This document shows, piece after piece, positions 11,134 to 30,077 of a stretch of 64,000 nt of DNA. A program made the position numbers and the translations under genes. The notes beneath the pieces are model-generated. The model worked only from the letters and a program-made list of their open reading frames with translations, did not search any database and was not told the origin of the DNA. This DNA comes from Alishewanella agri BL06 (GTDB lineage Bacteria > Pseudomonadota > Gammaproteobacteria > Enterobacterales > Alteromonadaceae). The stretch is taken from the NCBI RefSeq assembly GCF_000272005.1, contig NZ_AKKU01000006.1, forward strand, positions 1-64,000, read 5' to 3'. Every line of letters begins with the position of its first letter. The stretch's first letter is position 1.

Positions 11134-11823
11134 GTGAATCAGCCAGCAACCAAAATCGTGATTATCAGTGGCGCCGGTATCAGTGCTGAGAGTGGCTTAG
11201 CGACCTTTCGCGATCCCGATGGCTTATGGCAGCAATATGATCTGGAAGACCTTGCCACCCCACAAGCCTTTGCGCGTAACCCCGCATTAGTTCATCGCTT
11301 TTATAATTCGCGGCGCATACAAGCAGCGAAAGCCGAGCCCAATGCAGCGCATTTAGCTATCGCCAAGTTAGAGCAAGCCTTTAATGTGGTGGTAGTAACA
11401 CAAAATGTTGATGATTTGCATGAGCGGGCAGGGTCGAGCAAGGTTCTTCACCTGCATGGCAAACTTAATGAAGCTCGCAGCAGCAAAAATCCAAATCTGA
11501 TTGAATTTATCGGTCAGCGCGAATTAAAAGTGGGAGAGCTCGCCGCTGATGGCTCAGCGCTGCGCCCTAATATTGTCTGGTTTGGCGAAGAGGTACCCGC
11601 CATGGAGCCTGCCATTAAAGAGATCCAAAGTGCCGATAAAATTTTAGTTGTCGGCACCTCGCTGCAAGTTTACCCAGCCGCGTCACTACTGTTTTATGCG
11701 CGCAAGGAAGCGGAAAAAGTCCTGATTAACCTGGAAGCTACCGACAATGATGCTGGCTATCAATTTATACAAGGAAAGGCGGCTACGGAAGTTTCGAAGT
11801 TAGTAAAGAAGTGGTTAGGCTGA
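11134..11823 (+). CDS. cobB: NAD-dependent protein deacylase, zinc-less CobB-type sirtuin
   Basis: 229 residues of the Sir2 fold: GAGIS (13-17) and TQNVDDLH (89-96) bind NAD, His108 in LHLHG is the catalytic base, and IVWFGE plus VVGTSLQVYPA complete the Rossmann part. Tyr57 and Arg60 (FYNSR) match the pair that gives class III sirtuins desuccinylase activity. The four zinc cysteines of E. coli CobB are missing; the region after LHGK has no cysteine at all. Zinc-less single-domain sirtuins are known in other bacteria. The GTG start has a weak AGGA site. It is divergent from the broken WYL gene. Confidence 0.88.
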   Translation: MNQPATKIVIISGAGISAESGLATFRDPDGLWQQYDLEDLATPQAFARNPALVHRFYNSRRIQAAKAEPNAAHLAIAKLEQAFNVVVVTQNVDDLHERAGSSKVLHLHGKLNEARSSKNPNLIEFIGQRELKVGELAADGSALRPNIVWFGEEVPAMEPAIKEIQSADKILVVGTSLQVYPAASLLFYARKEAEKVLINLEATDNDAGYQFIQGKAATEVSKLVKKWLG

Positions 11824-12489: not shown

Positions 12490-12511
12490 TTTTCAAGCAA
12501 CAAGGATGTTT

Positions 12512-13594
12512 ATGAAAATATTACGTTTTATTGTTTTCGCCATGTTCTTTTGGGGTTCCGGCATTTTCCTGTTGCCACTGGCCTATGATTCGGTATTGTT
12601 TTTCGTTCACCAACACGCCAGCGAAGCTATTGCTAGAGTGCATCTGCGTTTTGTACCAGACAAAGAGTTCAATATTCACCTTAAAGCTGCGCTAGAGGAA
12701 AATGAAATTGAGCTTGCTAATATTATCCGTGAAATTGGCACAGAGCAGGGTATCGAATTTGAACCCGCTCTTATCAGCCAGCTTGATAAAGAGAATGGTT
12801 CCTGGCAAACGGTCTCACGCAACAGTCGTAAGGTTTTAGAGGGAGCTAAAACAGGCGAAATTACTTCAGGATATGCAATGGCTGGTGCTTTGGGTTCTGA
12901 TCTATTTGGCATATCGGATTTTCGTGATCATGCAAATGAATTGCAAGCTTATCCGGATTACAACTCCTTTAACGTGGGCTTGTCCCTAGTCGGCGTGGTT
13001 GGCACCGCACTGACTGTGTCAGCAGTTATTAATGGTGGTAGCAGCGCTTTAGCCGGCGCACCTTTGCGATTTTCCGTTACTACCATAAAAGGAGCCAAAA
13101 AAGCCGGTAAATTATCAAAGAAACTTGAGAAGTTTGTCTCAGGTCATCTGGATAACATCGTAGATAAAAATGCCGTTGACGAACTAGCTCTCGCTTTTAA
13201 AAAAATCGACATTGACTCAATCAATAAAAAGCAAGCCGATGAATTGCTTGAACTTAGCAAAAAGTCAGTCAACATTAAGGCTCTTGAACCCTTGGCTTCC
13301 GGTGTTGATGATCTGCGAGTTATCAGCGGTAGTTCCGGATTTCTGGGACTTTCACGAACCCTAGCTATTGCAGATGACTTTAACGATACCGCCCGCTTGT
13401 CAAAACTTGCTAAAGCTACGAAAAACCGCTACGCGGGCTACATCACTCTGGCTCCGAAGTTGGCAAAATCCATCACTAAAGCGCTACGCATACTGCTCGA
13501 GGCTATAGCAACCCTTATTAGCGCCCTGATTTGGTTGCTGGGGGTAGTTTGGTACTTCTTCAGCGCAGTAAGGCTAGTTTTCCGGAAGACATAG
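12512..13594 (+). CDS. Unknown multi-helix membrane protein with glycine-rich core
   Basis: 360 residues, no family recognised. There is an N-terminal hydrophobic helix (about 4-28), an acidic helical region with SQLDKENGSWQTVSRNSRKV, a hydrophobic glycine/alanine-rich centre (YNSFNVGLSLVGVVGTALTV, SAVINGGSSALAGAP), a lysine-rich amphipathic stretch (IKGAKKAGKLSKKLEKFV), and a strongly hydrophobic C-terminus (about 327-355, with LISALIWLLGVVWYFFSAV). The layout is compatible with a pore-forming or membrane-perturbing protein but does not prove one. The start at 12512 is preferred over the ATG at 12506, which overlaps the AAGGA ribosome site. It precedes hsdR by 268 bases. Confidence 0.6.
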   Translation: MKILRFIVFAMFFWGSGIFLLPLAYDSVLFFVHQHASEAIARVHLRFVPDKEFNIHLKAALEENEIELANIIREIGTEQGIEFEPALISQLDKENGSWQTVSRNSRKVLEGAKTGEITSGYAMAGALGSDLFGISDFRDHANELQAYPDYNSFNVGLSLVGVVGTALTVSAVINGGSSALAGAPLRFSVTTIKGAKKAGKLSKKLEKFVSGHLDNIVDKNAVDELALAFKKIDIDSINKKQADELLELSKKSVNIKALEPLASGVDDLRVISGSSGFLGLSRTLAIADDFNDTARLSKLAKATKNRYAGYITLAPKLAKSITKALRILLEAIATLISALIWLLGVVWYFFSAVRLVFRKT

Positions 13595-13862: not shown

Positions 13863-16800
13863 ATGCAAAAGATGATATCAACCAATTTTGAATTTTTAAG
13901 ACCAGAAAACGACAACCTGGCAAACCTGTGCGCCTTAGCTGAAGCAGTGTTGTATATCGATCCGGGTAGCACATTAGTGCGCCTGCGTAGCTTTGCTGAA
14001 GAACTCACCAAAACCATTTATAAAGAAGAATTGCTGCCGCGTATGCCGCAGGCAAGTTTTTATGAACTGCTGAAAAGCCCCGTTTTTGAAGATTGTGTAA
14101 GTAAATCCCTCATCTACCAAATTAACTTTATAAGGGTTAAAGGCAACGATACCGCCCACGGTGCTGAAGGGGAGATACAAAATGCACAAATGGCGCTGCG
14201 TACTGCTCATCAACTGGCCATTTACCTGGCGGTAAAATATTACGGTAAAGATCAAAATCAATTACCCGGCTTTGCCGAGGTGCCAGATCCGAGCAAAACA
14301 CTTATTCAGCTGCAAAAAACGGTATTTGAGTACGAAAAAGAGCTGAAAAAGCAGCAAGAAGATCTGGAAAAGGTTTTTGAAAAACTGGATGCCGAACGCG
14401 CTAAAAATGCCGATAAAATTGGCTTACCGCCTAAACCTGTACTGCAACGGCAGAAGCAGCAAAGCCAGCAAGTGGCTGATAGCCTGCAGTGGAGTGAAGC
14501 AAAAACCCGGGCATTAATGATCGATGCCATGCTATTACAAGCGGGTTGGGATGTCTCTGATCCGGAAAAGGTCGGGCAAGAAGTTGAGGTCGACTTTCCC
14601 AATAACCCAAGCGGAAAAGGCTTTGTCGATTATGTGTTGTGGGCCGACAACGGCCAGCCATTGGCGGTAGTCGAGGCGAAAAAGTCGGGTAACACCAGTT
14701 TACAGGCTGGGCGTGAGCAGGCGCGCATGTATGCAGACTCACTTGAACGAATGGGGTATCAACGGCCGGTTATCTTTTATACCAATGGTTATGAAACCTT
14801 TATCTGGGATGATACCCAATATAATACCTACCGGCCGGTATATGGCTTTTATGGCAAAGACAGCCTGGATTATTTGATTTACCAGCGAAACTACCGCGCT
14901 GCAGAGTTAGAGCGTTTTAACCCAGATTTAAACATCGCCGATCGGCCTTATCAAATTGAAGCGATAAAAACCGTAGCCGAACATTTTCAGAACCAGCGAC
15001 GTAAAGCATTAATCATTCAGGCTACTGGCACAGGCAAAACCCGTGTTGCCATTGCTCTGGCAGAATTATTACTTAGAACCGGTTGGGCCAAACGTGTGCT
15101 GTTCCTCTGTGATCGCAAAGAGTTACGGGTACAAGCTGACGATGCATTTAAACAAAACTTACCCTCAGAGCCACGCTGTGTCATTGGCGAAACGAATAAA
15201 ATAGATCAAAGCGCCAGGGTATATATCGCTACTTACCCTGGCATGATGAACCGTTTCGCCCAGCTGGATGTTGGTTTTTTTGATCTGATTATTGCTGATG
15301 AGTCACATCGTAGTATTTACAATAAATACCGCGACTTATTCGAGTACTTTGATGCGTTACAGGTTGGCTTAACCGCAACGCCAGTGAAGTTTATTAGCCG
15401 CAATACATTTGATATTTTTGATTGCGAAGCCACCGATCCTACCTTTGAGTTTGGCCTGGATGCCGCTATTAATAACGAGCCACCTTATCTGGTGCCGTTT
15501 CGGGTAAAAGATCTTACTACGGATTTTTTGCGTGACGGTATTCACTATAGCCAGCTAACTACAGAGCAACAGCGTCAATTAGAAGAAGATTTGGGCGAAG
15601 ACGAAGCGCGAAAAACAACCATAGCGGGTAAAGATATCGGCCGGAAAATTTTCAGTGAAGATACGGATCGTATCATTCTTGAAAACCTGATCAACAATGG
15701 CATCAAAGATGAAACCGGCTCCCTGGTTGGGAAAACCATTATTTTTGCCCAGCGCCAAGACCATGCTGAACATTTAGCCAAGTTATTCTGTGAAAAGTTA
15801 TATCCACAATATGGCGCAAAGGTTTGCAAGGTTATCCATAACGATATTCCGCATGTTGAAAGTTTAATTAAAGAGTTTAAAAAGGCCGATAACGATTTTC
15901 GCATCGCCATTTCGGTAGATATGCTCGATACCGGCATCGACGTACCCGAGGTAGTCAACCTGGTTTTTGCTAAACCGGTTAAAAGCTGGGTGAAGTTCTG
16001 GCAAATGATTGGCCGTGGCACTCGGTTGCGGCAAAATTTGTTTGGCCCGGGTAAGCACAAAACAGAATTTCTGATTTTCGACCATTACGGCAACTTTGAG
16101 TTTTTCGAGCAGGAATATCAGGAGCCTGAAGATACCGGTGGAAAATCTTTACTACAATCCACCTTCGAAGCACGTTTAACGCTGGCACAGGCGGCATTAA
16201 AACATAATCATGCCGAAGCATTTGATGCCGCAGTGGCCTTGTTGCGGGCAGATATCAATGATCTACCCGATAACAGTGTCGCAGTTAGGCGGAAATTGCG
16301 TATCGTTCATCAACTACAACAAACCGATTTACTAAACAAGCTGGATGCGAAAACCCTGCATCTGTTGCTAAACGACATTGCTCCCTTAATGTCGGCTCGC
16401 GTACTGCGTGATAAGCATGCAACGCAGTTAGATAAATTGATGGCCACTATAGAGCGCTGCATGGTAGAGCAAGCCAGCTGCTTCGCAGATGGCCGCAACG
16501 AATTATTAGCTGATCTGGATAAATTGGCCGTCAATATTCAGGCTGTGCGGCAAAAAGATGAAATTATTGCCAAAGTACGCAGTGGCGCATTCTGGCAAAA
16601 CCCCAGTATTCCTTCGCTAGAACATGTTCGGGAAGAGTTGCGTGGCATTATGAAGTACCGCCAACCAGGCACCGGCCCGTTTTATGAAACTGCCACAACC
16701 CGCACCCTGGATGGTGGGATAAAAGAAGCTGTGCGAGAAGTGAAAATTGCTGGTGCAGACGAGGCCATGTTATACCGGCGAAGGCTAAAAACCATTTTAG

Positions 16801-17276
16801 AGCAAATGATTGCCGCTAACCCGACATTGCAAAAAATCCGTAAAGGCGAGCCTATTGCTGAGCACGAGCTGCAAAGCCTTACCTCAACCATACTCACCAG
16901 CCACCCAGGCGTCAGCCTTGAAGTGCTAAACGAGTTTTATGGCAGAACCGCCAAAGAGCTGCATATCACAGTACGGGAAATGATTGGGGTAGATGTGCAA
17001 GCCATAGAGGAACACTTTAAACGGTTCCTGCACAGCCACCCGAGCTTAACAGCAAAGCAGGTAAATTTTATGAACCTGCTAAAAACGTATATCGCGCAGC
17101 ATGGCAGTATTGTCATTGAAAAGCTGTATGACGCCCCCTTTACTGCTGTATCGCACGAGGGTATCGATGGCGTATTTGCTGCTGACGACATTACCGATTT
17201 AATTTCTGTGCTTAAACCCTTTATGCAAACTGTACCGCCAATAACATCAAACCAACCTATCGCTTCACAGGAGTGA
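13863..17276 (+). CDS. hsdR: Type I restriction endonuclease subunit R
   Basis: 1137 residues. An N-terminal DUF4145-like helical region (about 15-130) and a coiled coil (about 145-185) precede the PD-(D/E)XK nuclease (Asp256, Glu271-Ala-Lys273). Then come the two-RecA translocase with Walker A GTGKT (389-393), DESH box (479-482), VGLTATP and the late motif GRGTRLR, and a C-terminal assembly domain. It cleaves DNA after ATP-driven translocation, in complex with HsdM and HsdS. It is the first gene of a tight operon; all catalytic motifs look intact. The ATG at 13863 follows CAGGGAAA. Confidence 0.95.
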   Translation: MQKMISTNFEFLRPENDNLANLCALAEAVLYIDPGSTLVRLRSFAEELTKTIYKEELLPRMPQASFYELLKSPVFEDCVSKSLIYQINFIRVKGNDTAHGAEGEIQNAQMALRTAHQLAIYLAVKYYGKDQNQLPGFAEVPDPSKTLIQLQKTVFEYEKELKKQQEDLEKVFEKLDAERAKNADKIGLPPKPVLQRQKQQSQQVADSLQWSEAKTRALMIDAMLLQAGWDVSDPEKVGQEVEVDFPNNPSGKGFVDYVLWADNGQPLAVVEAKKSGNTSLQAGREQARMYADSLERMGYQRPVIFYTNGYETFIWDDTQYNTYRPVYGFYGKDSLDYLIYQRNYRAAELERFNPDLNIADRPYQIEAIKTVAEHFQNQRRKALIIQATGTGKTRVAIALAELLLRTGWAKRVLFLCDRKELRVQADDAFKQNLPSEPRCVIGETNKIDQSARVYIATYPGMMNRFAQLDVGFFDLIIADESHRSIYNKYRDLFEYFDALQVGLTATPVKFISRNTFDIFDCEATDPTFEFGLDAAINNEPPYLVPFRVKDLTTDFLRDGIHYSQLTTEQQRQLEEDLGEDEARKTTIAGKDIGRKIFSEDTDRIILENLINNGIKDETGSLVGKTIIFAQRQDHAEHLAKLFCEKLYPQYGAKVCKVIHNDIPHVESLIKEFKKADNDFRIAISVDMLDTGIDVPEVVNLVFAKPVKSWVKFWQMIGRGTRLRQNLFGPGKHKTEFLIFDHYGNFEFFEQEYQEPEDTGGKSLLQSTFEARLTLAQAALKHNHAEAFDAAVALLRADINDLPDNSVAVRRKLRIVHQLQQTDLLNKLDAKTLHLLLNDIAPLMSARVLRDKHATQLDKLMATIERCMVEQASCFADGRNELLADLDKLAVNIQAVRQKDEIIAKVRSGAFWQNPSIPSLEHVREELRGIMKYRQPGTGPFYETATTRTLDGGIKEAVREVKIAGADEAMLYRRRLKTILEQMIAANPTLQKIRKGEPIAEHELQSLTSTILTSHPGVSLEVLNEFYGRTAKELHITVREMIGVDVQAIEEHFKRFLHSHPSLTAKQVNFMNLLKTYIAQHGSIVIEKLYDAPFTAVSHEGIDGVFAADDITDLISVLKPFMQTVPPITSNQPIASQE

Positions 17277-17278
17277 CA

Positions 17279-19126
17279 ATGCAGAGTATTGAATGGACAA
17301 CAAGCCTGATCGTAATGGCAGTTATTGCCGCCATAGTGTTACTGGCGCTGGGATATTTTATCGCCAAAGCAGTTGCTAGCAGTATGGTTGCCGCATTAAA
17401 CGTGCAGTTGCAGCAAGCCCAACAAGCAATGGAGCAAGCCAATAGCCAAAACCAGCAGCTACAGCTAAAACTGGGCCAGGCAGATGATGCGCTGCGGCAA
17501 AAAGAATTGTCAGAGAGCAAGCTACAAACCCAGCTTAGTGCTGCGGAGAGCACCGAGCAGCGTCTAACCGCAGAGCTTGGTGACCGTAAAAATGAATTCA
17601 ACAATCAAAGTCAGGTATTAGAAGTTGTAAGAGCGCAGCATCATAATGCGGAGAAACTGTTGGAAACGGCGCAGGCAGATAACCGCAGTCTTAAAGAGCA
17701 GGTTCAGGAGTTACGTAGCCGCTTAGATAAATCGGAGCAGGGTTTGCAGCAAGAGCGGTTACAAGTAAATCAGCTAAAAGATTTATTGGCGGAAGAGGGC
17801 AAAGCAACGGAGTCCTTGAGTAGTAAATTGGAAGAAGCTCGAAAACATTTCGCAGAACAAAGAGAAAGCCTGATGGCAGAAAAACAGCGGAATGAAACGT
17901 TACAAGCTGAACATCAAGCTTTGGTGAAAGCACATACTCAACTTAAAACAGAATTAGACGAACGAGAAGCTAGCCATGCTCGTGAAGTAGCCAATTTTGA
18001 GAAGCAGAAGCAGAGCTTAGCTGAGCAATTTAAAGTTCTGTCGAATGAAATATTAGAAGCTAAGACTAAGTCATTGCAGGAAAGCAGCAAGCTGACGTTA
18101 AGTTCGGTTATGAGTCCATTTCAACAGTCAATTGATAGCTTCAAAAAAGAAGTACAGGAAATACATCACCGTGAAACTACGCAGCAAGGTGAGTTGCGCA
18201 AAGAGCTAGAATCACTGAAAGAACTTAATCAGAAAATCACCACAGAAGCGCATGAGCTATCAACGGCTTTGCGTGGACAGAAAAAATTACAAGGAAATTG
18301 TGGTGAATTAGTTCTTGAGAACGTGCTGGATCGTTCTGGTTTGCAGCTTGGAAAAGATTATCAACGTGAAGTGAGTTTTACTTCGGAAGAGGGCCGTCAA
18401 AGACCTGATGCCGTGGTGTATTTGCCACAGGGCAGGCATTTGATCATCGATGCCAAAGTGTCACTTAATGCTTATACTCGCTTCGTTAATTCGGAAGATG
18501 ACCTGGAGCGGTCTCAAGCTTTGAAAGAGCATGTTCACGCTGTAGGTAGCCGCATTAAAGAGTTAGCCGATCGCAATTATTACAAGTTGCCAGGTTTAAA
18601 CTCGCCAGAAATGGTATTTATGTTCATCCCTATTGAGTCGGCATTTGTTGAAGCGCTAAAAGCTGACGAAACGTTATTCCAACAGGCGATAGAAAATAAT
18701 GTTTTGGTTGCGACTCCAACCACGCTGCTAACCAGTCTTAACATAGTGCGTCAGTTATGGCGCTATGAAGATCAAAACAAACACACTGCAGCTTTAGCGA
18801 ACAAAGCGGAAGCAGTATTTAAAAAATTAAACACCTTTCTTGGAAGCTTTGAACGGATTAAGAAAGGTTTGGACACCGCTTCTGATGCTTATGCCATGGC
18901 TGAAAACCAATTGGTTAGTGGTAAGGGTAACTTGGTAAAGCAAGTTGGCGAGTTTAAGAATCTTGCACCGGCTATCAAAGGTGAACTTCCAAGCTATTTT
19001 GCCGATAAAGCGGCGCTTGAAATCGACTTTATTGCAGCAGAGCAAATGCTGATTGCTGAGACACAAACTGAAATTAAGGATGCCAGTGCTGATGACATCC
19101 AAGAAACTGAAATTGAGAACAACTAA
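17279..19126 (+). CDS. RmuC-family paralogue inside the restriction operon
   Basis: 615 residues: membrane helix (about 9-32), a coiled coil extended to about 330 residues, and the RmuC domain. From QLKTELDER onward (about residue 220) it aligns without gaps to the chromosomal RmuC at 5160-6668 with roughly 80% identity by eye, while the N-terminal third differs. The invariant-looking GNWGE of the other copy is GNCGE here (Cys341). Codon use is more AT-rich. Start at ATG 17279, 2 bases after the hsdR stop with AGGAG overlapping it; the stop abuts hsdM with no gap, so it is translationally tied to both. Role unknown; RmuC is not a standard type I subunit. Confidence 0.9.
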
Positions 19127-20731
19127 ATGCTAACAGGCCACATTCGTAACGATATCGACAAACTTTGGGAAAAGTTCTGGACCGGCGGTATCACTAACCC
19201 GCTTACGGTTATCGAGCAAATCAGTTATCTGATGTTTGCCCGCATGCTGGATATGCAGGAAGACATGGCCGAACGCAAAGCTAACCGAACCGGTAAAGCC
19301 TTTTCGCGTATTTTCCCCAATACACCAGAAGGCCAACTGCTGCGGTGGAAAAACTTTAAGCAAAAAAGCGGTAAAGAGCTGCAAAACCATTTAAAGCAGC
19401 AGGTGTTTCCATTTTTTGCCACGCTGGGTAAAAAGTCTGATCAGCAAAACGGTTTGGGCGAAGAGGGTAGCGCTATAGAGGCGCTTGGTCACATTGGCGA
19501 GTATATGCAAGATGCCGATCTTGAGATAAAAAACGAGTCGGTATTGGTAAGCGCCATAGAAATGGTAGATGCCTTGCCGCTAACGCAAAGCGATGTAAAA
19601 GGCGATATATACGAATACCTGTTAAGTAAGCTCACGACGGCCGGTATAAATGGCCAGTTCCGCACGCCACGGCATATTATTGATGCCATGATCGAGCTGA
19701 TGGACCCGCAGCCAACTGATGTTATCTGCGACCCTTCTTGCGGCACCGCAGGCTTTTTAGCCCGCACTATGGAATATCTTAACCGGGTGCATTCCAGCGA
19801 GGCTGGCACCTTTACCGATGAAGACGGCAATAAGCACTACACCGGAGACAAATTAGAGCCGTTCCGTGACCATATTAACAAACAGATGTTTTGGGGTTTT
19901 GATTTCGACACCACCATGCTGCGCGTCTCAAGCATGAACATGGCGCTGCACGGTGTTAATGGTGCCAATATTCTGTATCAGGATAGCTTAAGTAAGTCGA
20001 TTAAAGAGAATTACCCACGCCAGGAAGAAAACTTCTTCGACGTTATTCTGGCCAACCCGCCATTTAAAGGCAGCCTAGACGAAACCAACACCAACCCCGA
20101 TGTACTAGGTTTGGTTAAAACCAAGAAAACCGAGCTGTTGTTTGTCGCACACATTCTGCGCTCGCTTAAGCTTGGCGGCCGCGCCGCGGTAATCGTACCC
20201 GACGGCGTGCTGTTTGGTTCATCCAAAGCACACCAGCAATTACGCCAGGAGTTGTTGGAAAATAACCAGCTTGAAGGCATCGTCAGCTTACCAAGCGGTG
20301 TCTTTAAACCCTATGCCGGGGTAAGCACGGCGATATTGCTTTTTACCAAAGGTGGCACGACCGAGCGGGTGTGGTTTTACGACCTGCAAGCCGATGGTTA
20401 CTCACTGGATGACAGACGCACCGAGCTAAAAGGCGAGGGCTGTAACGACCTGCCCGATGCCATTGCCAAATGGAAGCAGTACCGCCAACTGGTTGAAAGC
20501 AATGCTGAAGAGGGTGATATTCAAAAACTCTTTGGCGATAAAACACAAAAAGCCTTTGTGATAGACGCCAAAGATATAATCGAGCATAAATTTGACCTGT
20601 CGATAAACCGCTATAAAGAAGTGGTGTATGCCGAGCAGCAATATGAAGACCCTAAGCTCATTCTGAAAAAGCTTAAAGCGCTGGAAAGCGAGATTATGGC
20701 TGATCTGGATGAGCTGGAGGACATGCTGTGA
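19127..20731 (+). CDS. hsdM: Type I restriction-modification DNA methyltransferase subunit M
   Basis: 534 residues. An N-terminal helical HsdM domain (about 1-140) is followed by an N6-adenine methyltransferase domain with the SAM motif DPSCGTAGF (202-210) and the catalytic NPPF (310-313). Together with HsdS it methylates the recognition site on both strands and protects the host from HsdR. The ATG directly follows the stop of the RmuC paralogue, and hsdS overlaps its end by 4 bases, so stoichiometric translation is likely. Confidence 0.96.
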
Positions 20732-21849
20732 GTTGGCAGATAGTAAAGCTAGGTACGTTGGTTGCTATTAAAACAGGTAAGCTCGATGCAAATGCAGCAG
20801 ATATACAAGGCTTATATCCTTTCTTTACTTGTTCTCGCGAGCCTTTGAGAATCAATTCATATGCGTTTGATTGTGATGCAATCTTGATAGCTGGTAATGG
20901 CGACCTTAATGTTAAGCATTACAACGGCAAATTCAACGCTTATCAGAGAACATATGTAGTTACATCGCTATCAGATGAAATTTTATGTACACGATATCTT
21001 TTTCATTTTATGGATAAGTATGTTGAACGCCTTCGTGAATTGAGTATCGGTGGGGTGATTAAATACATCAAGCTGGGAATGCTGACAGACGCAGAAATCC
21101 CACTGCCACCACTAGCCGAGCAAAAACGTATTGCCACGATTCTGGACGTAGCCGACGCCATCCGCCGCAAACGCCAGCAAGCCATCCAACTCGCCGACAA
21201 TTTCCTACACGCCGTGTTTCTGGAGATGTTTGGCGATCCGGTGATGAATCCAAAAGGCTGGGCAATATCATCGGTGACTGCACATGGTAGCTTTAAAAAC
21301 GGTCTCAACTTTGGTAAAGGAGAATCCGGACACTCTCTGCGATATTTGGGTGTTGGTGATTTTAAATCATTGAGCACTATAGATGATATTGGTTCGTTAG
21401 GGAGTGTTACGTTAGATTCGTTGCCTGGGAAAGATTATCTACTTGAAAATGGCGATCTGGTATTTGTTAGGTCAAACGGCAATAAAGAATTGGTTGGTCG
21501 TTGTATTACTATATATCCTGACGGAGAGCCGTTAACTTTTAGTAGCTTTTGTATCCGTTATCGAATTGAAGATGATTCTGTAGCTTCTGAATATCTAAAT
21601 TATTTATTCCGGACTCCGTCCATGAAGCAAACGATGCTGAAAGGAGGACAAGGAGCAAATATTCAAAACATAAATCAAAAAATATTAGGTGCACTTGAGT
21701 TTCCATTGCCGCCTAAAGCACTTCAGGAAAAGTTCTCAAAAATTGTACAAACATATAGAGGTTCAAAGCTCTTTTTAGATTGTGGCTTTGTACATGCTGA
21801 AAGTTTGTTTGCAGCAATCAGCCAAAAAGCTTTTTCCGGCAAACTATAA
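20728..21849 (+). CDS. hsdS: Type I restriction-modification specificity subunit S
   Basis: 373 residues. Two target-recognition domains are visible: residues about 1-120 and about 165-340. Each is followed by a conserved helical spacer, the first being IPLPPLAEQKRIATILDVAD and the second FPLPPKALQEKFSKIV. HsdS sets the bipartite DNA site for both methylation and cleavage. GTG start at 20728 with GGAGG upstream, overlapping the hsdM stop. The first recognition domain is short, so the site cannot be guessed. Base composition is more AT-rich in the recognition domains than in hsdM, as expected for recombining specificity genes. Confidence 0.93.
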   Translation: MSWQIVKLGTLVAIKTGKLDANAADIQGLYPFFTCSREPLRINSYAFDCDAILIAGNGDLNVKHYNGKFNAYQRTYVVTSLSDEILCTRYLFHFMDKYVERLRELSIGGVIKYIKLGMLTDAEIPLPPLAEQKRIATILDVADAIRRKRQQAIQLADNFLHAVFLEMFGDPVMNPKGWAISSVTAHGSFKNGLNFGKGESGHSLRYLGVGDFKSLSTIDDIGSLGSVTLDSLPGKDYLLENGDLVFVRSNGNKELVGRCITIYPDGEPLTFSSFCIRYRIEDDSVASEYLNYLFRTPSMKQTMLKGGQGANIQNINQKILGALEFPLPPKALQEKFSKIVQTYRGSKLFLDCGFVHAESLFAAISQKAFSGKL

Positions 21850-21869
21850 ACTCATTTCAGGGATGAAAA

Positions 21870-23858
21870 ATGAAAATTAAAAATGTGCGCATTAAGAACT
21901 ATCGTTTGCTCAAGGATGTCTCGTTTTCAATAGATGATAAAACAACACTAATTGTTGGGCGCAACAACACTGGGAAAACGTCATTTGCTGAGGCATTTCG
22001 TAGTTTTCTGAACCCTTCAGGGCCAAAGGTCCGTTACGAAGATTTCAACCAATCTTGCCTGAAAGGTTTTGAAGAAGCGTTAAATGCTGTAAGGAGTGGC
22101 GCTGAAGAAGATGCTGTTAGGCCAATGCTTCCAACGATTGAGTTAGAGCTTCAGGTTAATTATCGTGATAATGCTGATGAATATGGTGTTTTGGGCGATT
22201 TTATAATCGATTTTGATGATAAGTTGTTTGATACGATTATCCTGGTTTCATACCAATTAAAAGATGGCAAGATTGCTGAATTTTTTAGCCAGCTCGACAA
22301 CGAAAACCGCAAGCAGTATTTCTCTGAGCTTAGAAAGCGTATTGAGCGTTATTACGAAGCTGTCGTCTATGCTATAGAACCAACTAACCTAGGCAACAAA
22401 ATTCGTGTTGAGTTTGCATCCTTTAAAAAGTTACTGCTATCGGGGCTCATAAATGCTCAACGAGGTTTAGATGACGAAACGCATAATGAACGTGATGTGC
22501 TGGGTAAGTCGTTAGGTAACATATTCAAAAGTTCGAGCAGTGTTGGTGCGCCGGAGGCTTTTAAAGCTCAATCGAATGAGATCAATACTGTTGTCGAAGA
22601 GCTGCAACAGAGAGTAGATACTGACTTTCAACAAAAAGTTCAGGCACTACTGCCAACCTTAAATATTTTTGGTTATCCGGGGCTGCATGATCCTAACTTA
22701 AGTGCTGCAACTGACCTTAATGTGAAGTCACTGTTGGAAAGCCACACAAGAGTCTATTACCAGCGTGACGATCACTTTACTTTGCCTGAAACCTATAATG
22801 GTTTAGGGATGCGGAACTTAATATTCATTTTGTTCCGCATTTACGAGTACTTCCGCGAGTTTCAAAGCTATCAAACGCCTCCGAAGGGACATGTCATTTT
22901 TATTGAAGAGCCCGAAGCTCATCTTCATCCGCAAATGCAGGAAGTGTTCATTCGGCAACTTGAGCTTATTGTTGGGCAATTCCAGAGGGAGTTAAATGAT
23001 CAGCGAGTGTGGCCAGTGCAATTTATTGTGAGCACCCATTCGTCCCATATTGCTAATGAAGCTGATTTTAGCAAAATTCGATATTTCCTCTCAAAAAATG
23101 GAGATGAAACTAGGGTTAAAGACCTTGGAATTGCTTTTCGCAGTCCTGAGGATGCAAATGATAAAGAGTTCTTGCATAAATATCTGACGCTAACAAAGTG
23201 CGATTTGTATTTTGCTGACCGGGCCATTCTTGTTGAAGGGGCAACAGAGAGAATACTGTTGCCTGAAATGATCAAAAAAGTGGATTCCACGACAGGGACT
23301 AACTTGAAACAAAAATACCTATCCGTTGTAGAAATTGGTGGGGCTTATGCGCATCATTTCTATAAATTCATTGATTTTCTTGAGCTGAAGACCCTCTTTA
23401 TAACTGATCTTGATTCAGTAGATTCAAAGCAAAATCATTCTGGAGTAATGGTAAGCAAGGGGGACAGGTCAAGTAACGTAGGGATTTCAAAATGGTTTGG
23501 TGGGGATGGTTACTCTGATTTGGCGGCCATTCGTGCTAGAGATTCAGATTCAAAAATTCATGGGTGTCGACGGATTGCGTATCAGATAAATGAAGATGCA
23601 AGTGGTTTATGTGGCCGCAGTTTTGAAGATGCCTTTATTCTGGCAAATAGCCAATTGTTTAAACTTGATAACCTAACGGGTGATGCACTTGAAAGTGCAG
23701 TTTTTAAGACGGCAAAGGAGATAGGCAAAAAGAGCAAAGCTGATTTTGCGATTGATTACTGTATTAAATCTACAGATTGGCTCGTCCCAAAATACATACA
23801 AGAGGGTTTGGCGTGGTTGGATCAGACGCCTAATGTTGTTGAGGATGTGCAGCCATGA
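21870..23858 (+). CDS. gajA: Gabija endonuclease GajA (OLD-type ATPase-Toprim)
   Basis: 662 residues. An ABC-type ATPase half carries Walker A GRNNTGKTS (30-38), a degenerate signature around YNGLGMRNLIF, Walker B IFIEEPEAHLHP (343-354) and the histidine switch STHSSH (388-393). A C-terminal Toprim nuclease follows, with Glu456 in VEGATE and the metal pair DLD (513-515). This is a class 2 OLD nuclease. Its ATGA overlap with a UvrD-like helicase gene is the arrangement of the Gabija anti-phage system, in which GajA nicks DNA when nucleotide pools fall and GajB supports it. It starts 20 bases after hsdS, so it seems part of the same operon. Confidence 0.9.
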   Translation: MKIKNVRIKNYRLLKDVSFSIDDKTTLIVGRNNTGKTSFAEAFRSFLNPSGPKVRYEDFNQSCLKGFEEALNAVRSGAEEDAVRPMLPTIELELQVNYRDNADEYGVLGDFIIDFDDKLFDTIILVSYQLKDGKIAEFFSQLDNENRKQYFSELRKRIERYYEAVVYAIEPTNLGNKIRVEFASFKKLLLSGLINAQRGLDDETHNERDVLGKSLGNIFKSSSSVGAPEAFKAQSNEINTVVEELQQRVDTDFQQKVQALLPTLNIFGYPGLHDPNLSAATDLNVKSLLESHTRVYYQRDDHFTLPETYNGLGMRNLIFILFRIYEYFREFQSYQTPPKGHVIFIEEPEAHLHPQMQEVFIRQLELIVGQFQRELNDQRVWPVQFIVSTHSSHIANEADFSKIRYFLSKNGDETRVKDLGIAFRSPEDANDKEFLHKYLTLTKCDLYFADRAILVEGATERILLPEMIKKVDSTTGTNLKQKYLSVVEIGGAYAHHFYKFIDFLELKTLFITDLDSVDSKQNHSGVMVSKGDRSSNVGISKWFGGDGYSDLAAIRARDSDSKIHGCRRIAYQINEDASGLCGRSFEDAFILANSQLFKLDNLTGDALESAVFKTAKEIGKKSKADFAIDYCIKSTDWLVPKYIQEGLAWLDQTPNVVEDVQP

Positions 23859-25606
23859 CGCCGCTTAACCCAGCGCAGAGAGCATCAGCTGAGACACTTG
23901 AAAATGTAAGACGTTGTATTGAACAGGGGCAATGCTTCAGATTGGAGGCTGGGGCTGGCGCGGGAAAAACATATTCGTTAATCGAGTCTATTAAATACCT
24001 AATTTCTGTTCGTGCCAATGAGTTTGCTGCAGTTGGAAAGCAGGTAGCGTGTATTACTTATACCAACGTGGCCAAAGACGAAATTAAGACTAGAACGGAT
24101 AATAACCCGATGATTTTTGCGGATACTATTCACGCCTTTAGCTGGAGTATTTTGCAAAATTATCAAGAAAAATTAAGGGAACTTATCCCTACTTTGGGGG
24201 GGAAATGGCATGAAAGAATTTCAGAATCAGTTGGGATACATCGCCAGACTGTAAAGTACGATTTAGGGTTTGCGTCCATAAAAGATAATGAAATATCACT
24301 ACATCACGATGACGTAGTTGCCCTTATGGCCCGTATGTTGGAATTTCCTAAATTTCAGAAATTATTGAAAAGTAAGTTCCCGTTTATTTTCATCGATGAG
24401 TATCAAGATACAGATACTGAACTTGCTGCAAGCATTGTGCATAACCTGATTGATAATGACTCTGGAGTTGTTATTGGGTTCTTTGGCGATCATTGGCAAA
24501 AAATTTATGGCTCTAAAGCATGTGGATTGATTGTGAGCCCTGCCGGGAAAATTACAGAGATTGGCAAACGAGCAAATTTCCGTTCAGATAAAAATATTGT
24601 TGAATGCCTGAATCGTATGCGCCCTGAATTACCGCAGGCTGAATCAGATCCAAACTCTCAGGGAACAATAAAAATTTATCATTCGAATGATTGGCAAGGA
24701 GTCAGGCAAACAGGAGGTCATTGGAAGGACGATCTTCCAGAAGATGAATCTAGGGAATTTATTCAGCAAACCAAATCATTAATGGTCGAACAGGGCTGGG
24801 ATATGTATTCATCTAAAACAAAAATACTTTTTCTGACCAATAACTTGATAGCTGCTGAGCAAAAATTTATAAACCTAGCGAATTGCTTTCAATATACGGA
24901 TGACTATCTGAAGAAAAATGACAAATATATTGAGTTTTTCGTTGATGTTGTTGAATCGACCGCTTTTGCTTTCCAGCATAGAAAGTATGGTGAATTACTT
25001 CAGATAAAAAAGAAAAGCCGATCTTACTTAACGTCGCAAATGGACAAAACCAAGTGGATTACAAACCTTTCTGAACTAATGCAGCGAAGAGCGAATGCCA
25101 GTATTGGTGATGTTTTAGATTTATTAATGTCAACCAATGTGCCTAGAGTTCCAGCGAAGGTTTCAGATACTGAAAGTCGTTACAAAATACTATCAGCGAA
25201 GCCTGCAGCTGAACTGACTGCTGACGAGTTGAGTTTTGTAGAGAAGATTAGCAAGTTGCGGGCAGTTCAATACAGCGAGGTTTCAAACCTGGCTGAATAT
25301 ATAAATGACAAAACACCTTTTTCGACAAAGCATGGGGTAAAAGGTGCTCAATTCGATAATGTTCTGGTGGTTTGTGGACGTGGCTGGAATCATTACAACT
25401 GGGATCAAATGCTTACATGGTTGCAGGACGGCGTACCAGCGGGAAAACAAGAGACATTTGAACGAAGTAGAAACTTGTTTTATGTAAGTTGTTCCAGAGC
25501 TAAACATAACCTTACGCTGCTTTTTACACAGAAATTGTCAGAGAAATCCATTAGCGTGCTTGAGCAGGTTTTTGGCAACACTAATGTTATAGGAAGCCCT
25601 TTTTAA
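23855..25606 (+). CDS. gajB: Gabija helicase GajB (UvrD-like)
   Basis: 583 residues of superfamily 1 helicase: Walker A AGAGAGKTY (32-40), Walker B FIDEYQDTD (179-187), the QxxxIYG-like motif FGDHWQKIYG, and motif VI RNLFYVSCSRAKHNLTLLF near the end. The motif V area reads HGVKGAQFDNVLVV, as in UvrD/AddA-type helicases. It overlaps gajA by 4 bases (ATGA). In studied Gabija systems GajB binds the GajA tetramer and hydrolyses nucleotides. It is somewhat longer than the roughly 500-residue studied GajB. Confidence 0.88.
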   Translation: MTPLNPAQRASAETLENVRRCIEQGQCFRLEAGAGAGKTYSLIESIKYLISVRANEFAAVGKQVACITYTNVAKDEIKTRTDNNPMIFADTIHAFSWSILQNYQEKLRELIPTLGGKWHERISESVGIHRQTVKYDLGFASIKDNEISLHHDDVVALMARMLEFPKFQKLLKSKFPFIFIDEYQDTDTELAASIVHNLIDNDSGVVIGFFGDHWQKIYGSKACGLIVSPAGKITEIGKRANFRSDKNIVECLNRMRPELPQAESDPNSQGTIKIYHSNDWQGVRQTGGHWKDDLPEDESREFIQQTKSLMVEQGWDMYSSKTKILFLTNNLIAAEQKFINLANCFQYTDDYLKKNDKYIEFFVDVVESTAFAFQHRKYGELLQIKKKSRSYLTSQMDKTKWITNLSELMQRRANASIGDVLDLLMSTNVPRVPAKVSDTESRYKILSAKPAAELTADELSFVEKISKLRAVQYSEVSNLAEYINDKTPFSTKHGVKGAQFDNVLVVCGRGWNHYNWDQMLTWLQDGVPAGKQETFERSRNLFYVSCSRAKHNLTLLFTQKLSEKSISVLEQVFGNTNVIGSPF

Positions 25607-25920: not shown

Positions 25921-26809
25921 ATGAGCTTGGAAAGCAATATGGAAACGACTAATTATAGTTTAATAAAATTATGGCCTGAGTTTTCCAGGCTGTTGGCTGG
26001 CGATTTTACCTCAGCTGAGGGCTTAAGTGCGGCGTTTGTTGCGGCGCTTTTTGCTTTAGCCATCATCTTTTCAGCAATGTCGCTTGTTAACTACATTAGA
26101 GCAAGTCGTCATTTGAGTTTTTATAAGCGTTTATTAAAAGGGCTTACGGTTGAGCAATTATTAGATAAGCGCCGTGAGTTAATCAATACCGCCTTACAAA
26201 ATCAGACTTATGGCCGACTATGGCGGGAGTTTGATGAGTCTCTGGTGCATATTCCGCAAAAGCAACGCCTTTGCAATACGCTTGATGCCGCTCACTTTTT
26301 TAATACTCACACTATCTCACGCGGCTTAACCGAAAACCGTTTGTTAGCTGCAGTACCAGGTTTTCTTACGGCTATTGGTGTTATAGGTACTTTTGTAGGC
26401 TTGCAGCTTGGTCTTGAATCTCTGAGGGAGCTTCAGCCTGCTAATACTAGCGTAGGTGATCTAACCCACGGTATTTTCGGCATGATTGGTGGGGCATCGA
26501 TAGCCTTTATGACCTCAGTCTGGGGGTGTGTTTATCAGTGTGCTGTTTAACTTTTTTGAAAAATGCCTTGAGCGTAATATTCGTTCTGCCATCAGTTCGT
26601 TCCAGAATGAGGTTGACTATTTATATCCGCGTATTACTGCTGAGCAAAGCCTATCAAATATCGAAGACTTTACCCGCCAAAGTAACGAGAGCTTAGCTGC
26701 GCTGGATGAAAAGATTGGGCATAAAATGCAAGAGGCGATGAAAGAAGCCTCTAATTTGATCAGTGCTAGCGTGGCGGGGCCGAAGCCGGAGCTGTCGAAT
26801 GATTTTTGA
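25921..26809 (+). pseudogene. Frameshifted and truncated zorA (Zorya proton-channel subunit)
   Basis: The first 200 codons match the MotA/ExbB-like membrane part of ZorA, with membrane helices (SAAFVAALFALAIIFSAM) and the channel segment LLAAVPGFLTAIGVIGTFVG. At the run of five G's (26522-26526) the frame shifts; removing one G restores TSVWGVFISVLFNFFEKCLE and continues through a coiled-coil start to the stop at 26807. Intact ZorA has a much longer cytoplasmic tail (usually about 700 residues in all), and no zorB, zorC or zorD is present. The system is therefore dead; only this fragment of one gene remains. Confidence 0.8.
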
Positions 26810-27771: not shown

Positions 27772-27920
27772 GCGTTAATTTCGCTTATTTGGTTCGGTTG
27801 CCTATTTGCTAAGCAAAGCGGCGGTTTGTTGCTGCTATTGCTCCCTAAATGCTTACCAGGCTGCGCTGAAATAACCTTGGCCGCAACGCTGAGAAAGTGC
27901 GGCGCCAGGGTTGTCGATTC

Positions 27921-27929
27921 TGCTATACT
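27921..27929 (+). promoter_or_regulatory. Extended -10 promoter of rlmKL
   Basis: TGCTATACT is an extended -10 box (TGn then TATACT) 31 bases before the rlmKL start codon. No good -35 box lies 17 bases upstream, which fits the extended -10 class. Confidence 0.45.
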
Positions 27930-27959
27930 AGCGGCCATTTTATTTTAAGGTTTGCTGCA

Positions 27960-30077
27960 ATGCTGGAATTTTGGGCTTTAACGTCTAAGGGCGTGGAAGA
28001 GCTGTTAGCGGATGAGATCCGCAGTTATCAGGGTGAAGTGTTAAAGGTCTCAATGGGCGTAGTACGCTTTAAGGCCGATATTAAAACGGCCTACACCCTA
28101 TGTTTATGGTCACGTCTGGCAACACGGATCCTGCGCTTAATTCAGTCGGAGCCGGTTACTGCCGAGTCGGATCTGTATCAGATCGCCAGTAATATCGACT
28201 GGGGCCAGTTAATGTCGGTGCGGCAAACCTTAGCCGTCGACTGTGTTGGCAAGCATCCCAAAATTGATAATACCCAATATGGCGGCATGCGCTTAAAAGA
28301 CGCCATTGTCGATCAGTTTCGCGAAGAAACCGGCGATCGGCCGGATGTGGATCGCTTAAACCCCGATGTGCGGTTTCAGGTACGTCTGGATAAACAGCAT
28401 TTTCACTTCCTGCTGGATTTCTCAGGCCCATCGTTACATCAACGCGGTTACCGTACCGGGCAGGGCGAGGCACCGTTAAAAGAGCATTTAGCGGCAGCCT
28501 TATTAAAGCGCTCTGGCTGGACTGTCGGTACCCCTTTGTACGATCCGTTCTGCGGTAGCGGCACTATTTTAATTGAAGCGGCGCAAATCAGCCTGAATCA
28601 GGCGCCGGGACTGGCACGGGAAAGCTTTGCCTTTGAGCGGGCACCGGGTTTTCGGGCCGCGGTATGGCAGCAATTAAAAGCCGATGCTAAAGCGCAGGCC
28701 TTGCCCGCGGGCGACACTATCCAGTTTTGGGGTACCGATACTGACGAGCGCAGCCTGAGTAAAGCGCGGCAAAATGCGGCCCGCGCCGGCGTGGCAAGCC
28801 TAATCAAATTTGATTATGCCGATGCCACTGCGTTAAAAGGCGCCGTGACGGATACCCCGGGTGTGATAGTGACTAACCCGCCTTATGGCGAGCGCTTGGG
28901 CGATCTGCCGGCACTGATCCCGCTTTACAGTAATTTCTCGCTGGCGCTAAAAACCCACTATCAGGGCTGGCGCCTGGCAATTATTACCTCGAACAGCGAC
29001 TTACTGCGTGCACTGCGCTTATCTAAAGCCAAGAGCTACAAATTTAGTAACGGCCCGCTGGACTGTGAATTCACGCTGTTTGACCTCACAGAAAAGCAGG
29101 TGCAGGTAAGCTCCAGCGCGCCAGCGCTGTTTTTTAGTGAGAGCAGCGCCTTTGGTAACCGGCTGGCGAAAAACGTAAAAGCCATTCAAAAATGGGCCAA
29201 ACGCGAAGGCTTAAGCTGCTATCGCTTATATGATGCCGATATTCCGGAATATAACGTCGCGGTAGATTGGTATGACGGCGAAGTGGTCGTGCATGAATAT
29301 GCCGCGCCGGGCACCGTCGATGAACAAATTGCCCAGAAGCGCTTGTTCGATGTGGTGAATCAGGTACCAACAGTGCTGGGGATTAGCCCGGATAAGATGA
29401 TCCTGAAGGTGCGGGAAAAGCAAAAGGGTACTAACCAGTATCAGGCACTGGCTAAAGCCGGCCAGTATAAAGAAGTGTCAGAGTATGGCGCTAAGTTCTG
29501 GGTTAACCTGCGCGATTATCTGGATACCGGGTTATTTTTAGATCACCGTATTACCCGGCGTATGCTGCAGCAACAAGCGCAGGGTAAGCGGGTATTAAAC
29601 CTGTTTGCCTACACTGGCAGTGCCTCGGTGCATGCGGCTATTGGCGGTGCGACCAGTGTCACTACCGTTGATATGTCCAATACCTATCTGGATTGGGCTA
29701 AACGCAACTTTATGCTGAACGGTCTTAATGGTAAACAATACCAGTTTGAACAGGCAGATTGCTTACAGTGGCTCGCCCGCAGCCGGAATTTATTTGATTT
29801 GATCTTTGTCGATCCGCCAACCTTTTCCAACTCGAAACGGATGGAAGATAGCTGGGATGTGCAGCGCGATCATGTCAAATTACTGAATATGTTGATTAGC
29901 AAGATGGCACCGGGCGCTAAGGTGATTTTCTCTAATAATAAGCGGCGCTTTAAGCTTGATTACGCGGCGCTGGAGGAAGCCGGCTGGCAGGTGAAAGATA
30001 TCTCGGCTGCGACCTTACCGGAAGATTTTAAGCGCAACCCGCATATTCATGTCTGTTTTGAGCTAACCCGGCCATGA
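27960..30077 (+). CDS. rlmL: 23S rRNA methyltransferase RlmKL (G2069-N7 / G2445-N2)
   Basis: 705 residues, the fused form found in gammaproteobacteria. The N-terminal half has a THUMP RNA-binding domain (about 45-155) and the RlmL methyltransferase with DPFCGSGTILIEAA and TNPPYGER, which makes m2G2445. The C-terminal half is RlmK (m7G2069) with LNLFAYTGSASVHAA and VDPPTFSNSKRM. The start at ATG 27960 (MLEFWALTSKG) fits the family; the open frame runs on upstream to 27897 without a ribosome site. A glutaredoxin-like gene overlaps its stop by 4 bases. Confidence 0.96.
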   Translation: MLEFWALTSKGVEELLADEIRSYQGEVLKVSMGVVRFKADIKTAYTLCLWSRLATRILRLIQSEPVTAESDLYQIASNIDWGQLMSVRQTLAVDCVGKHPKIDNTQYGGMRLKDAIVDQFREETGDRPDVDRLNPDVRFQVRLDKQHFHFLLDFSGPSLHQRGYRTGQGEAPLKEHLAAALLKRSGWTVGTPLYDPFCGSGTILIEAAQISLNQAPGLARESFAFERAPGFRAAVWQQLKADAKAQALPAGDTIQFWGTDTDERSLSKARQNAARAGVASLIKFDYADATALKGAVTDTPGVIVTNPPYGERLGDLPALIPLYSNFSLALKTHYQGWRLAIITSNSDLLRALRLSKAKSYKFSNGPLDCEFTLFDLTEKQVQVSSSAPALFFSESSAFGNRLAKNVKAIQKWAKREGLSCYRLYDADIPEYNVAVDWYDGEVVVHEYAAPGTVDEQIAQKRLFDVVNQVPTVLGISPDKMILKVREKQKGTNQYQALAKAGQYKEVSEYGAKFWVNLRDYLDTGLFLDHRITRRMLQQQAQGKRVLNLFAYTGSASVHAAIGGATSVTTVDMSNTYLDWAKRNFMLNGLNGKQYQFEQADCLQWLARSRNLFDLIFVDPPTFSNSKRMEDSWDVQRDHVKLLNMLISKMAPGAKVIFSNNKRRFKLDYAALEEAGWQVKDISAATLPEDFKRNPHIHVCFELTRP

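What the first reader, a model, noticed from the sequence alone, without database searches (positions are those of the whole stretch)
13863..25606. RmuC paralogue and Gabija embedded in one operon with a type I restriction system
The order hsdR - rmuC-like - hsdM - hsdS - gajA - gajB has junctions of 2, 0, -4, 20 and -4 bases, all on one strand, so six genes look like a single translation-coupled unit. Type I R-M needs only R, M and S, and Gabija only GajA and GajB; RmuC is a poorly understood membrane-anchored, nuclease-like protein normally alone on the chromosome. Its insertion between R and M suggests a working link, for example protecting host DNA ends made by HsdR or acting on invading DNA. 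I do not know of this combination as a defined system.
Basis: partly seen in the sequence, partly recalled or inferred. Interest (0 to 1): 0.72.

Follow-up and report, generated by a model that had tools for sequence, protein, structure and literature searches.

The report
Exchangeable nuclease slot in restriction operon
Many bacteria carry an extra, probably membrane-anchored DNA-cutting protein wedged inside one family of restriction-enzyme operons, and its cutting domain has been swapped several times, which suggests a replaceable second weapon against viruses; the Gabija genes downstream are a local add-on.

Summary
The gene order is real and all six frames are intact. The recurrent unit is hsdR-rmuC-hsdM-hsdS. 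Gabija is a local add-on: no other fetched locus matched GajA, and genes directly after hsdS differ between loci. An rmuC between hsdR and hsdM recurs in 37 of 79 distinct loci with this HsdR family, in 18 named genera, two doubtful. It is usually an extra copy beside a second RmuC (27 of 29 genomes), with invariant PD-(D/E)XK residues and purifying selection. The hsdR-hsdM gap behaves as an exchangeable slot: two classes of RmuC nuclease domain, YhcG nucleases (8 of 79), a few other genes, or nothing (30 of 79). The window gene is mosaic: after near-identical A. jeotgali, its N-terminal part is nearest to an operon RmuC with the other nuclease domain. Most likely it is a co-expressed, membrane-tethered effector nuclease like ShdA of Shield, a second layer beside restriction. 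RmuC (called ShdA) in Pseudomonas type I operons was already noted in PMC11090510, so this is a new variant of a known kind; the breadth, the swapping and the YhcG alternative were not found in print in my searches.

The parts
13863..17276 (+). hsdR, type I restriction subunit (1137 aa): HSDR_N, helicase motor, EcoEI_R_C
   Evidence: D256, E271-x-K273, Walker A GTGKT at 389, DESH at 479
17273..19126 (+). rmuC-like accessory nuclease (617 aa from GTG; 615 from the likely ATG at 17279): N-terminal hydrophobic helix, long coiled coil, PD-(D/E)XK RmuC domain of class A
   Evidence: PF02646 306 bits; second RmuC of the genome; E345, D379, D393, K395 invariant in 38 of 38 rows (37 operon copies and the window's stand-alone one); model with helix 10-267 then alpha/beta core; membrane helix read from the sequence, not predicted by a program
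17279..17930 (+). operon-type N-terminal part of the RmuC gene (about residues 1-220); after A. jeotgali nearest to Rheinheimera maricola L039, whose nuclease domain is class B
   Evidence: limits approximate
17930..19040 (+). class A nuclease domain (about residues 220-590); after A. jeotgali nearest to the Nitrincola L041 operon RmuC; 66-96% identical in bins of 241-590 to the window's stand-alone RmuC
   Evidence: limits approximate
19127..20731 (+). hsdM, N6-adenine methyltransferase subunit (534 aa)
   Evidence: HsdM_N + N6_Mtase; NPPF at 310
20728..21849 (+). hsdS, specificity subunit (373 aa)
   Evidence: Methylase_S, two stretches
21870..23858 (+). gajA, Gabija OLD-family nuclease (662 aa); add-on downstream of the unit
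   Evidence: PADLOC GajA 907 bits, residues 1-658
23855..25606 (+). gajB, Gabija UvrD-like helicase (583 aa); add-on
   Evidence: PADLOC GajB 832 bits
5160..6668 (+). stand-alone rmuC of the same genome (502 aa), related to the class A domain

Best explanation
The RmuC-like gene is an accessory effector nuclease carried in an exchangeable slot between hsdR and hsdM of one type I R-M family. The protein sits in the inner membrane by its N-terminal helix, holds its PD-(D/E)XK domain on a long coiled coil at the cytoplasmic face, and is made together with R, M and S. When foreign DNA enters, HsdR translocates and cuts unmodified DNA while the membrane-tethered RmuC attacks DNA near the membrane (incoming DNA, or the broken linear pieces), as a second layer that does not depend on the recognition site. 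It acts as its own unit rather than as a subunit of the enzyme, so nuclease domains can be swapped (RmuC class A or B) or another nuclease (YhcG) used without changing HsdR. Shown here: order, recurrence, invariant catalytic residues, purifying selection, swapping, extra-copy status. From a paper: ShdA, an RmuC-domain protein, defends alone and its domain degrades DNA. Inferred: membrane location, co-expression, the action on phage DNA, independence from the Hsd complex. Gabija is a separate downstream cargo.
For: Recurrence: 37 of 79 distinct loci, 18 named genera. Slot alternatives include another PD-(D/E)XK family, YhcG/DUF1016, in 8 of 79 (domain of L040, the others by tblastn; L082 a piece); both families were assigned to PD-(D/E)XK in PMC1189080 (passages). 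Catalytic set invariant in 38 of 38 rows; dN/dS about 0.07-0.12 in five pairs. Fold: the 4 PDB matches of the model with E <= 0.001 are the CRISPR ancillary nucleases Card1, Can2 (twice) and Cdn1, with low TM scores. Swapping: DNA identity in hsdR, rmuC, hsdM about 96, 54, 94% between two Alcanivorax; similar contrasts in L098/L070 and window/L039; class switches at least 6 on the N-terminal tree, 3 forced by starred branches, 9 on the HsdR tree. RmuC of these classes also occurs with no hsd match in the stretch fetched: after a zorD-like gene (L193), among unrelated genes (L194), and a relative on an 8.7 kb plasmid (L171). ShdA alone defends and its RmuC domain degrades DNA in vitro (PMC10270631, sections 6 and 12 and passages).
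Against: No functional data for this protein or, in what I read, for any RmuC in a type I operon. N-terminal distances follow HsdR distances (Mantel r 0.77, near the HsdR-HsdM 0.80, 36 rows), as a physical partnership would give, though linkage explains it too. Within each class the nuclease domain also follows HsdR (0.91 and 0.81), so swaps are occasional. The structure model is of middling confidence (pLDDT 71, pTM 0.33). The slot is empty in 30 of 79 loci.
Confidence: 0.5

Rival explanations
1. Guard: RmuC is held inactive while the type I enzyme works and is released when a phage anti-restriction protein inhibits or depletes the enzyme, giving an abortive response, as PrrC does for EcoprrI.
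For: PrrC is embedded in a type IC locus and senses its inhibition (PMC12707154 and PMC2610378, passages). In this family a group of AAA_13 (RloC/PrrC-like) genes follows hsdS in 7 of 74 loci, and a group of OLD-like genes in 10 of 74; the one member of the latter that was scanned (L046) hits PADLOC AriA over its AAA part and GajA models. The N-terminal part follows HsdR.
Against: RmuC of the same classes occurs with no hsd genes in the stretches fetched (L193, L194; a relative on plasmid L171), where it would have nothing to guard nearby; class exchange between near-identical HsdR leaves little time for co-adaptation of the nuclease domain.
Confidence: 0.25
2. End processor or host protector: RmuC acts on DNA ends or structures made by HsdR, either finishing phage DNA or limiting damage to the host chromosome.
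For: Position directly after hsdR; housekeeping RmuC is linked to inversions at short inverted repeats (PMC1189080, passages).
Against: 30 of 79 loci with the same enzyme family have no gene there, so HsdR does not need it.
Confidence: 0.13
3. Hitch-hiker: a housekeeping gene copy that landed in the operon and is carried along without a role.
For: The window's stand-alone rmuC is close to the class A domain; presence of RmuC changes often (15 changes on the HsdR tree).
Against: Conserved place and spacing in 32 of 35 loci, intact active site, purifying selection, two classes and an unrelated nuclease family at the same place.
Confidence: 0.07

Closest known systems
ShdA in type I R-M operons of Pseudomonas (CoCoNuTs paper, PMC11090510, section 11 part 1 with the Figure 8 legend)
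   Same: Membrane helix, long coiled coil and RmuC nuclease encoded inside a type I R-M operon; an RtcR-like activator in most relatives (58 of 80 loci; 27 of 35 with RmuC; the L034 gene is RtcR_PspF2 CARF_AAA_HTH in PADLOC).
   Different: No RtcR-like gene near hsdR in the window; the arrangement reaches well beyond Pseudomonas; two nuclease classes are swapped. CoCoNuT genes were not looked for.
Shield (ShdA, PMC10270631)
   Same: N-terminal membrane helix and C-terminal RmuC domain in a defence island; the class A domain groups with two Pseudomonas RmuC of 526-535 aa beside WYL genes (L188, L189) that may be ShdA (identity with ShdA not verified).
   Different: rmuC is followed by hsdM, not by shd genes (shdB-E were not searched for by sequence); the host is probably not Pseudomonas.
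PrrC/RloC genes in type I loci (EcoprrI; Campylobacter rlo genes)
   Same: Extra effector gene inserted in a type I operon; RloC/PrrC-like AAA_13 genes sit after hsdS in 7 of 74 loci (L033 and L034 members scanned).
   Different: RmuC is a predicted DNA nuclease, not an anticodon nuclease; it lies between hsdR and hsdM.
Gabija
   Same: Complete gajA-gajB pair.
   Different: Found at this operon only here; not part of the recurrent unit.
Housekeeping RmuC (E. coli RmuC)
   Same: Same Pfam domain and motif.
   Different: Operon copies are additional in 27 of 29 genomes, mostly longer, and of other clades than most stand-alone gammaproteobacterial copies sampled.

Membership tests
Type I R-M system | hsdR, hsdM and hsdS with intact motifs | tested here: met
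Gabija | gajA (AAA + TOPRIM) and gajB (UvrD-like) adjacent | tested here: met
Gabija + R-M as one system | recurrent linkage of gajAB to this hsd operon | tested here: not met
   no GajA or GajB match outside the window in the fetched loci (blastp 1e-6); of 36 loci with a gene within 60 bases of hsdS, GajA only in the window
RmuC (PF02646) | domain over the curated cut-off and PD-(D/E)XK residues | tested here: met
   306 bits against 26; residues invariant
Shield | ShdA-type protein: membrane helix plus RmuC domain | tested here: inconclusive
   architecture fits; no verified ShdA sequence was at hand for comparison
Shield | shdA alone or with shdB-E directly downstream, in Pseudomonas | tested here: not met
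   rmuC is followed by hsdM; the host is inferred to be near Alishewanella
ShdA-in-type-I arrangement of PMC11090510 | RmuC gene within type I operon | tested here: met
ShdA-in-type-I arrangement of PMC11090510 | RtcR-type sigma-54 activator upstream | tested here: not met
   no match to the L033 and L034 activators in window 5001-32000 by blastp; present in 27 of 35 relatives with RmuC
PrrC-type guard | activation on inhibition of the R-M enzyme | not testable with these tools
   needs a bench test

The most novel reading that the evidence does not exclude
The hsdR-hsdM gap of this type I family is an effector port: a membrane-coiled-coil arm that stays with the operon carries interchangeable nuclease warheads (RmuC class A or B; or a separate YhcG), exchanged by recombination between conserved flanks, as specificity domains are in hsdS. 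That would make these type I operons modular two-nuclease defence systems, with a third module downstream of hsdS (OLD-like, RloC-like, Gabija).
Probability: 0.45. Interest if true: 0.68.

Novelty: new variant of a known kind. Interest (0 to 1): 0.52.

Why it matters
The role of RmuC has stayed unclear, and type I R-M is usually taught as a three-subunit machine (both from general knowledge). A conserved, swappable nuclease slot inside a type I family would show that such operons carry built-in back-up effectors, would fit the repeated appearance of RmuC domains in defence loci (Shield and DISARM-like operons in PMC10270631; here also after a zorD-like gene), and offers a direct test of what the RmuC domain does, since natural operons exist that differ mainly in this gene.

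Tried and rejected
Considered and rejected: (1) Gabija as part of the unit. (2) A copy of the host's own chromosomal rmuC dropped into the operon: the N-terminal part matches operon RmuCs, and the nuclease domain is nearer to Nitrincola L041 (90-100% in bins over 216-500) than to the stand-alone copy (60-96% in the same bins). (3) The direction of transfer between the stand-alone rmuC and class A operon copies stays open: the tree nests the stand-alone copy among operon copies, but holding the operon copies and L193 together is not rejected (p-AU 0.149). (4) A sigma-54 promoter before hsdR: consensus matches in the window are no more than chance (47 found, 48.7 expected) and no RtcR-like gene is near. 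(5) RmuC in more distant type I families: 0 of 19 loci at 35-48% HsdR identity in the flank fetched, up to 1.5 kb. E. coli has hsdM relatives in 414 of 5426 genomes, none over 80% of the query; the one chromosome and one plasmid looked at have R-M-S with no RmuC annotated. (6) Solved structures by sequence: the 60 rows shown of 89 are coiled-coil matches in the N-terminal part.

Limits and rows dropped: one search found its loci by two HsdR peptide patterns and kept the best 80 of 93, so the sample is not random. L034 and L079 are one record: L034 was dropped from the censuses and the HsdR tree, L079 from the RmuC trees and the residue count, and both from the Mantel tests (36 rows). L072, L089 and L111 lack one gene at contig ends. 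One search was given 33 loci: 29 of the 35 with RmuC and 4 without. One search scored at most 11 candidates a genome. In one search L018 and L021 were labelled stand-alone though they are the operon copies L033 and L034; removed. Classes A and B were set by me. The trees carry long-branch warnings.
Full report
OBSERVATION. The six genes are present as described, on one strand, with junctions of +2 (from the likely ATG at 17279), 0, -4, +20 and -4 bases, and without internal stops. Pfam and PADLOC identify HsdR, RmuC, HsdM, HsdS, GajA and GajB. The genome holds two RmuC genes over the Pfam cut-off, both in this window: the operon copy, and a stand-alone copy at 5160-6668 between a chemotaxis receptor gene and a transglycosylase-domain gene. 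The defence genes lie between a Sir2-family gene (11134-11823) and rlmKL (27897-30077). The host was not told; the nearest HsdR is that of Alishewanella jeotgali (99%).

RECURRENCE. An alignment of three HsdR (A1) fetched 80 loci from genome contigs, the best of 93 found by two peptide patterns. Of these, 77 have both hsdR and hsdM, and 35 of the 77 have an rmuC between them. With the window and L033 added, the census of 79 distinct loci is: RmuC 37 (one of them with YhcG, one with DUF6036), YhcG/DUF1016 in 8 (one with RmuC; L082 only a 124-residue piece), DUF6036 in 2 (the L076 match is just at the Pfam cut-off), a Schlafen/AlbA_2 gene in 1, fewer than 200 bases in 30, something else in 3 (domains of L040, L042 and L076). 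The longest RmuC frame starts within 24 bases of the hsdR stop in 32 of 35; in L041 it follows YhcG directly. Of the 35 loci, 32 fall into 18 named genera of gamma-, beta- and alphaproteobacteria, the last by one MAG contig (L053); 3 have no genus. Two labels (Pantoea sp. Cy-639, a Paucimonas MAG) are doubtful, because the other RmuC of these genomes groups with those of Pseudomonas (HK_L136, HK_L133).

EXTRA COPY, UNCOMMON OUTSIDE. In 29 genomes with an operon RmuC that were searched, 27 have two RmuC and 2 have only the operon one; 4 of 4 genomes of loci without an operon RmuC have one. In 199 Pseudomonas genomes, 197 have an RmuC and 7 have two. Of the 7 second copies, 3 lie between hsdR and hsdM (L043, L190, L191), one follows a ZorD-like gene (L193), one stands beside ZorC- and ZorD-like genes (L192), and two of 526-535 aa stand beside WYL-like genes (L188, L189), perhaps Shield (the WYL match was scanned in L189). 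In 369 gammaproteobacterial genomes, 20 have an HsdR relative at E <= 1e-100; apart from the window only G340 belongs to the close family (80%), and its slot holds YhcG; none of the 19 loci at 35-48% identity shows RmuC in the flank fetched, up to 1.5 kb. In these samples the link is a property of this HsdR family, not of type I R-M at large.

SWAPPING. Operon RmuCs carry one of two nuclease-domain classes, A (15 of 37, window included) and B (22 of 37), which lie in separate parts of the tree; class A is mixed with the window's stand-alone copy and a few others. After near-identical A. jeotgali (L038), the window's N-terminal part is nearest to L039 (Rheinheimera maricola; 78, 75, 60% identity in the three bins of residues 1-120), whose nuclease domain is class B (20-40% in bins of 241-590), while the window's domain is nearest to L041 (Nitrincola; 90-100% in bins over 216-500). 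DNA scans in 100-base bins show the same in three pairs, hsdR, rmuC, hsdM: window/L039 about 81%, about 50% in the later part, about 88%; Alcanivorax L073/L090 about 96, 54 and 94%; L098/L070 about 93%, first 240 bases of rmuC 85-93% then mostly 40-60%, about 90%. The class changes at least 6 times on the N-terminal tree (3 forced by starred branches) and 9 times on the HsdR tree, where presence of RmuC changes 15 times (quick tree); both trees carry long-branch warnings, and the labels are more clustered than shuffles. Distances of the N-terminal part follow HsdR (Mantel r 0.77; HsdR with HsdM 0.80); the nuclease domain does so strongly only within a class (0.91 in A, 0.81 in B; 0.23 over all) (36 rows). 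The simplest reading is recombination between conserved hsdR and hsdM flanks, as for hsdS domains. That the N-terminal part follows HsdR may be partnership or mere linkage.

FUNCTIONAL STATE. E345, D379, D393 and K395 (window numbering from the GTG) are invariant in 38 of 38 rows, 37 operon copies and the window's stand-alone one. dN/dS is about 0.07, 0.09, 0.11, 0.07 and 0.12 in five pairs; a sixth was saturated. The AlphaFold2 model (pLDDT 71, pTM 0.33) has one long helix (10-267) and an alpha/beta core; of 704 PDB matches the 4 with E <= 0.001 are the CRISPR ancillary nucleases Card1, Can2 (two entries) and Cdn1 (E 2e-4 to 8e-4, TM 0.12-0.22). That these are PD-(D/E)XK nucleases is recalled. 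PMC1189080 (passages) assigned both RmuC and YhcG to that superfamily.

DOWNSTREAM AND UPSTREAM. Of 74 loci with a frame after hsdS, 36 have one within 60 bases. By blastp groups: 10 like L046 (OLD-like AAA_15 with TOPRIM; L093 a partial frame), 7 AAA_13 (RloC/PrrC-like), 4 in a group of three 1093-aa helicase-like frames and one of 206 aa, 3 KAP NTPase-like, two groups of 2, and 8 single, one of them GajA in the window (one or two members a group scanned). No other fetched locus matched GajA or GajB at 1e-6. GajA is of the same broad OLD kind as the group of 10. 58 of 80 loci have an RtcR-like activator in the stretch (27 of 35 with RmuC; of the eight without, L053 and L055 are cut at the contig end), but not the window, A. 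jeotgali or R. maricola.

MECHANISM. I take the RmuC to be a membrane-tethered effector nuclease co-expressed with restriction (0.5), rather than a guard released by anti-restriction (0.25), an end processor (0.13) or a passenger (0.07). For the first: a nuclease alternative in the same slot, exchange of nuclease classes against nearly constant HsdR, occurrence of the same classes of RmuC with no hsd match nearby, and the experiments on ShdA (PMC10270631, sections 6 and 12 and passages read). For the guard: the PrrC precedent (PMC12707154, PMC2610378, passages) and RloC- and OLD-like neighbours. No step of action on phage is shown here.

NOVELTY. PMC11090510 (section 11, part 1 of 2, read) already reports an RmuC-like gene, called ShdA, in type I R-M operons of many Pseudomonas, in loci with RtcR-type regulators. 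I did not find the wider spread, the two swapped classes, the YhcG alternative or the mosaic gene in print in the searches, of which I opened eight papers and otherwise saw listings; the library holds open-licence papers only, and Miller et al. 2005 on Campylobacter rlo genes was seen only as cited in PMC2610378. Hence new variant of a known kind.

Noticed in passing
window 5160-6668: The stand-alone rmuC of this genome is close to the class A operon domain and nests among operon copies, while R. maricola (L142) and three same-genus genomes (L146, L148, L149) gave a quite different RmuC of 396-399 aa; it may have been domesticated from a defence operon or have been the donor. AU test undecided (p 0.149).
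   Followed up: partly
window 25921-26809: Truncated zorA-like frame of 209 aa (PADLOC ZorA 268 bits) followed only by short frames; ZorA-like frames of 623-677 aa lie downstream of the same hsd family in L087 and L097, so this looks like a decayed Zorya remnant.
   Followed up: partly
window 13863-20731 against L038 10001-16869: A. jeotgali is 95-100% identical to the window in 100-base bins (one bin 88%) through hsdR and the first half of rmuC, then 74-98% in late rmuC and hsdM: a mosaic among close relatives.
   Followed up: partly
L171 1867-3435: An 8.7 kb Acinetobacter plasmid (NZ_CP113938.1) with a MobA/MobL-family gene carries an rmuC related to class A, with no restriction genes annotated.
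   Followed up: partly
L193 3831-5681; L192 3521-5440: RmuC genes next to ZorD- or ZorC/ZorD-like genes in Pseudomonas; L193 is class A with an operon-type N-terminus, so RmuC also joins Zorya-like loci.
   Followed up: partly
L194 4218-5741: Nitrincola lacisaponensis carries a second RmuC of class B (507 aa) with no hsd match in the 11 kb fetched, beside its class A operon copy in L041.
   Followed up: partly
window 12506-13594: Gene of 362 aa without any Pfam, PADLOC or NCBIfam match at 0.001 upstream of hsdR, 94% conserved in A. jeotgali (L038).
   Followed up: no
L185 9001-15196: Azotobacter chroococcum plasmid pAcX50d carries a relative of the hsd operon with an RtcR-like sigma-54 regulator gene, hsdM annotated in pieces and no gene listed under the hsdR match (the table omits pseudogenes): probably decayed.
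   Followed up: no
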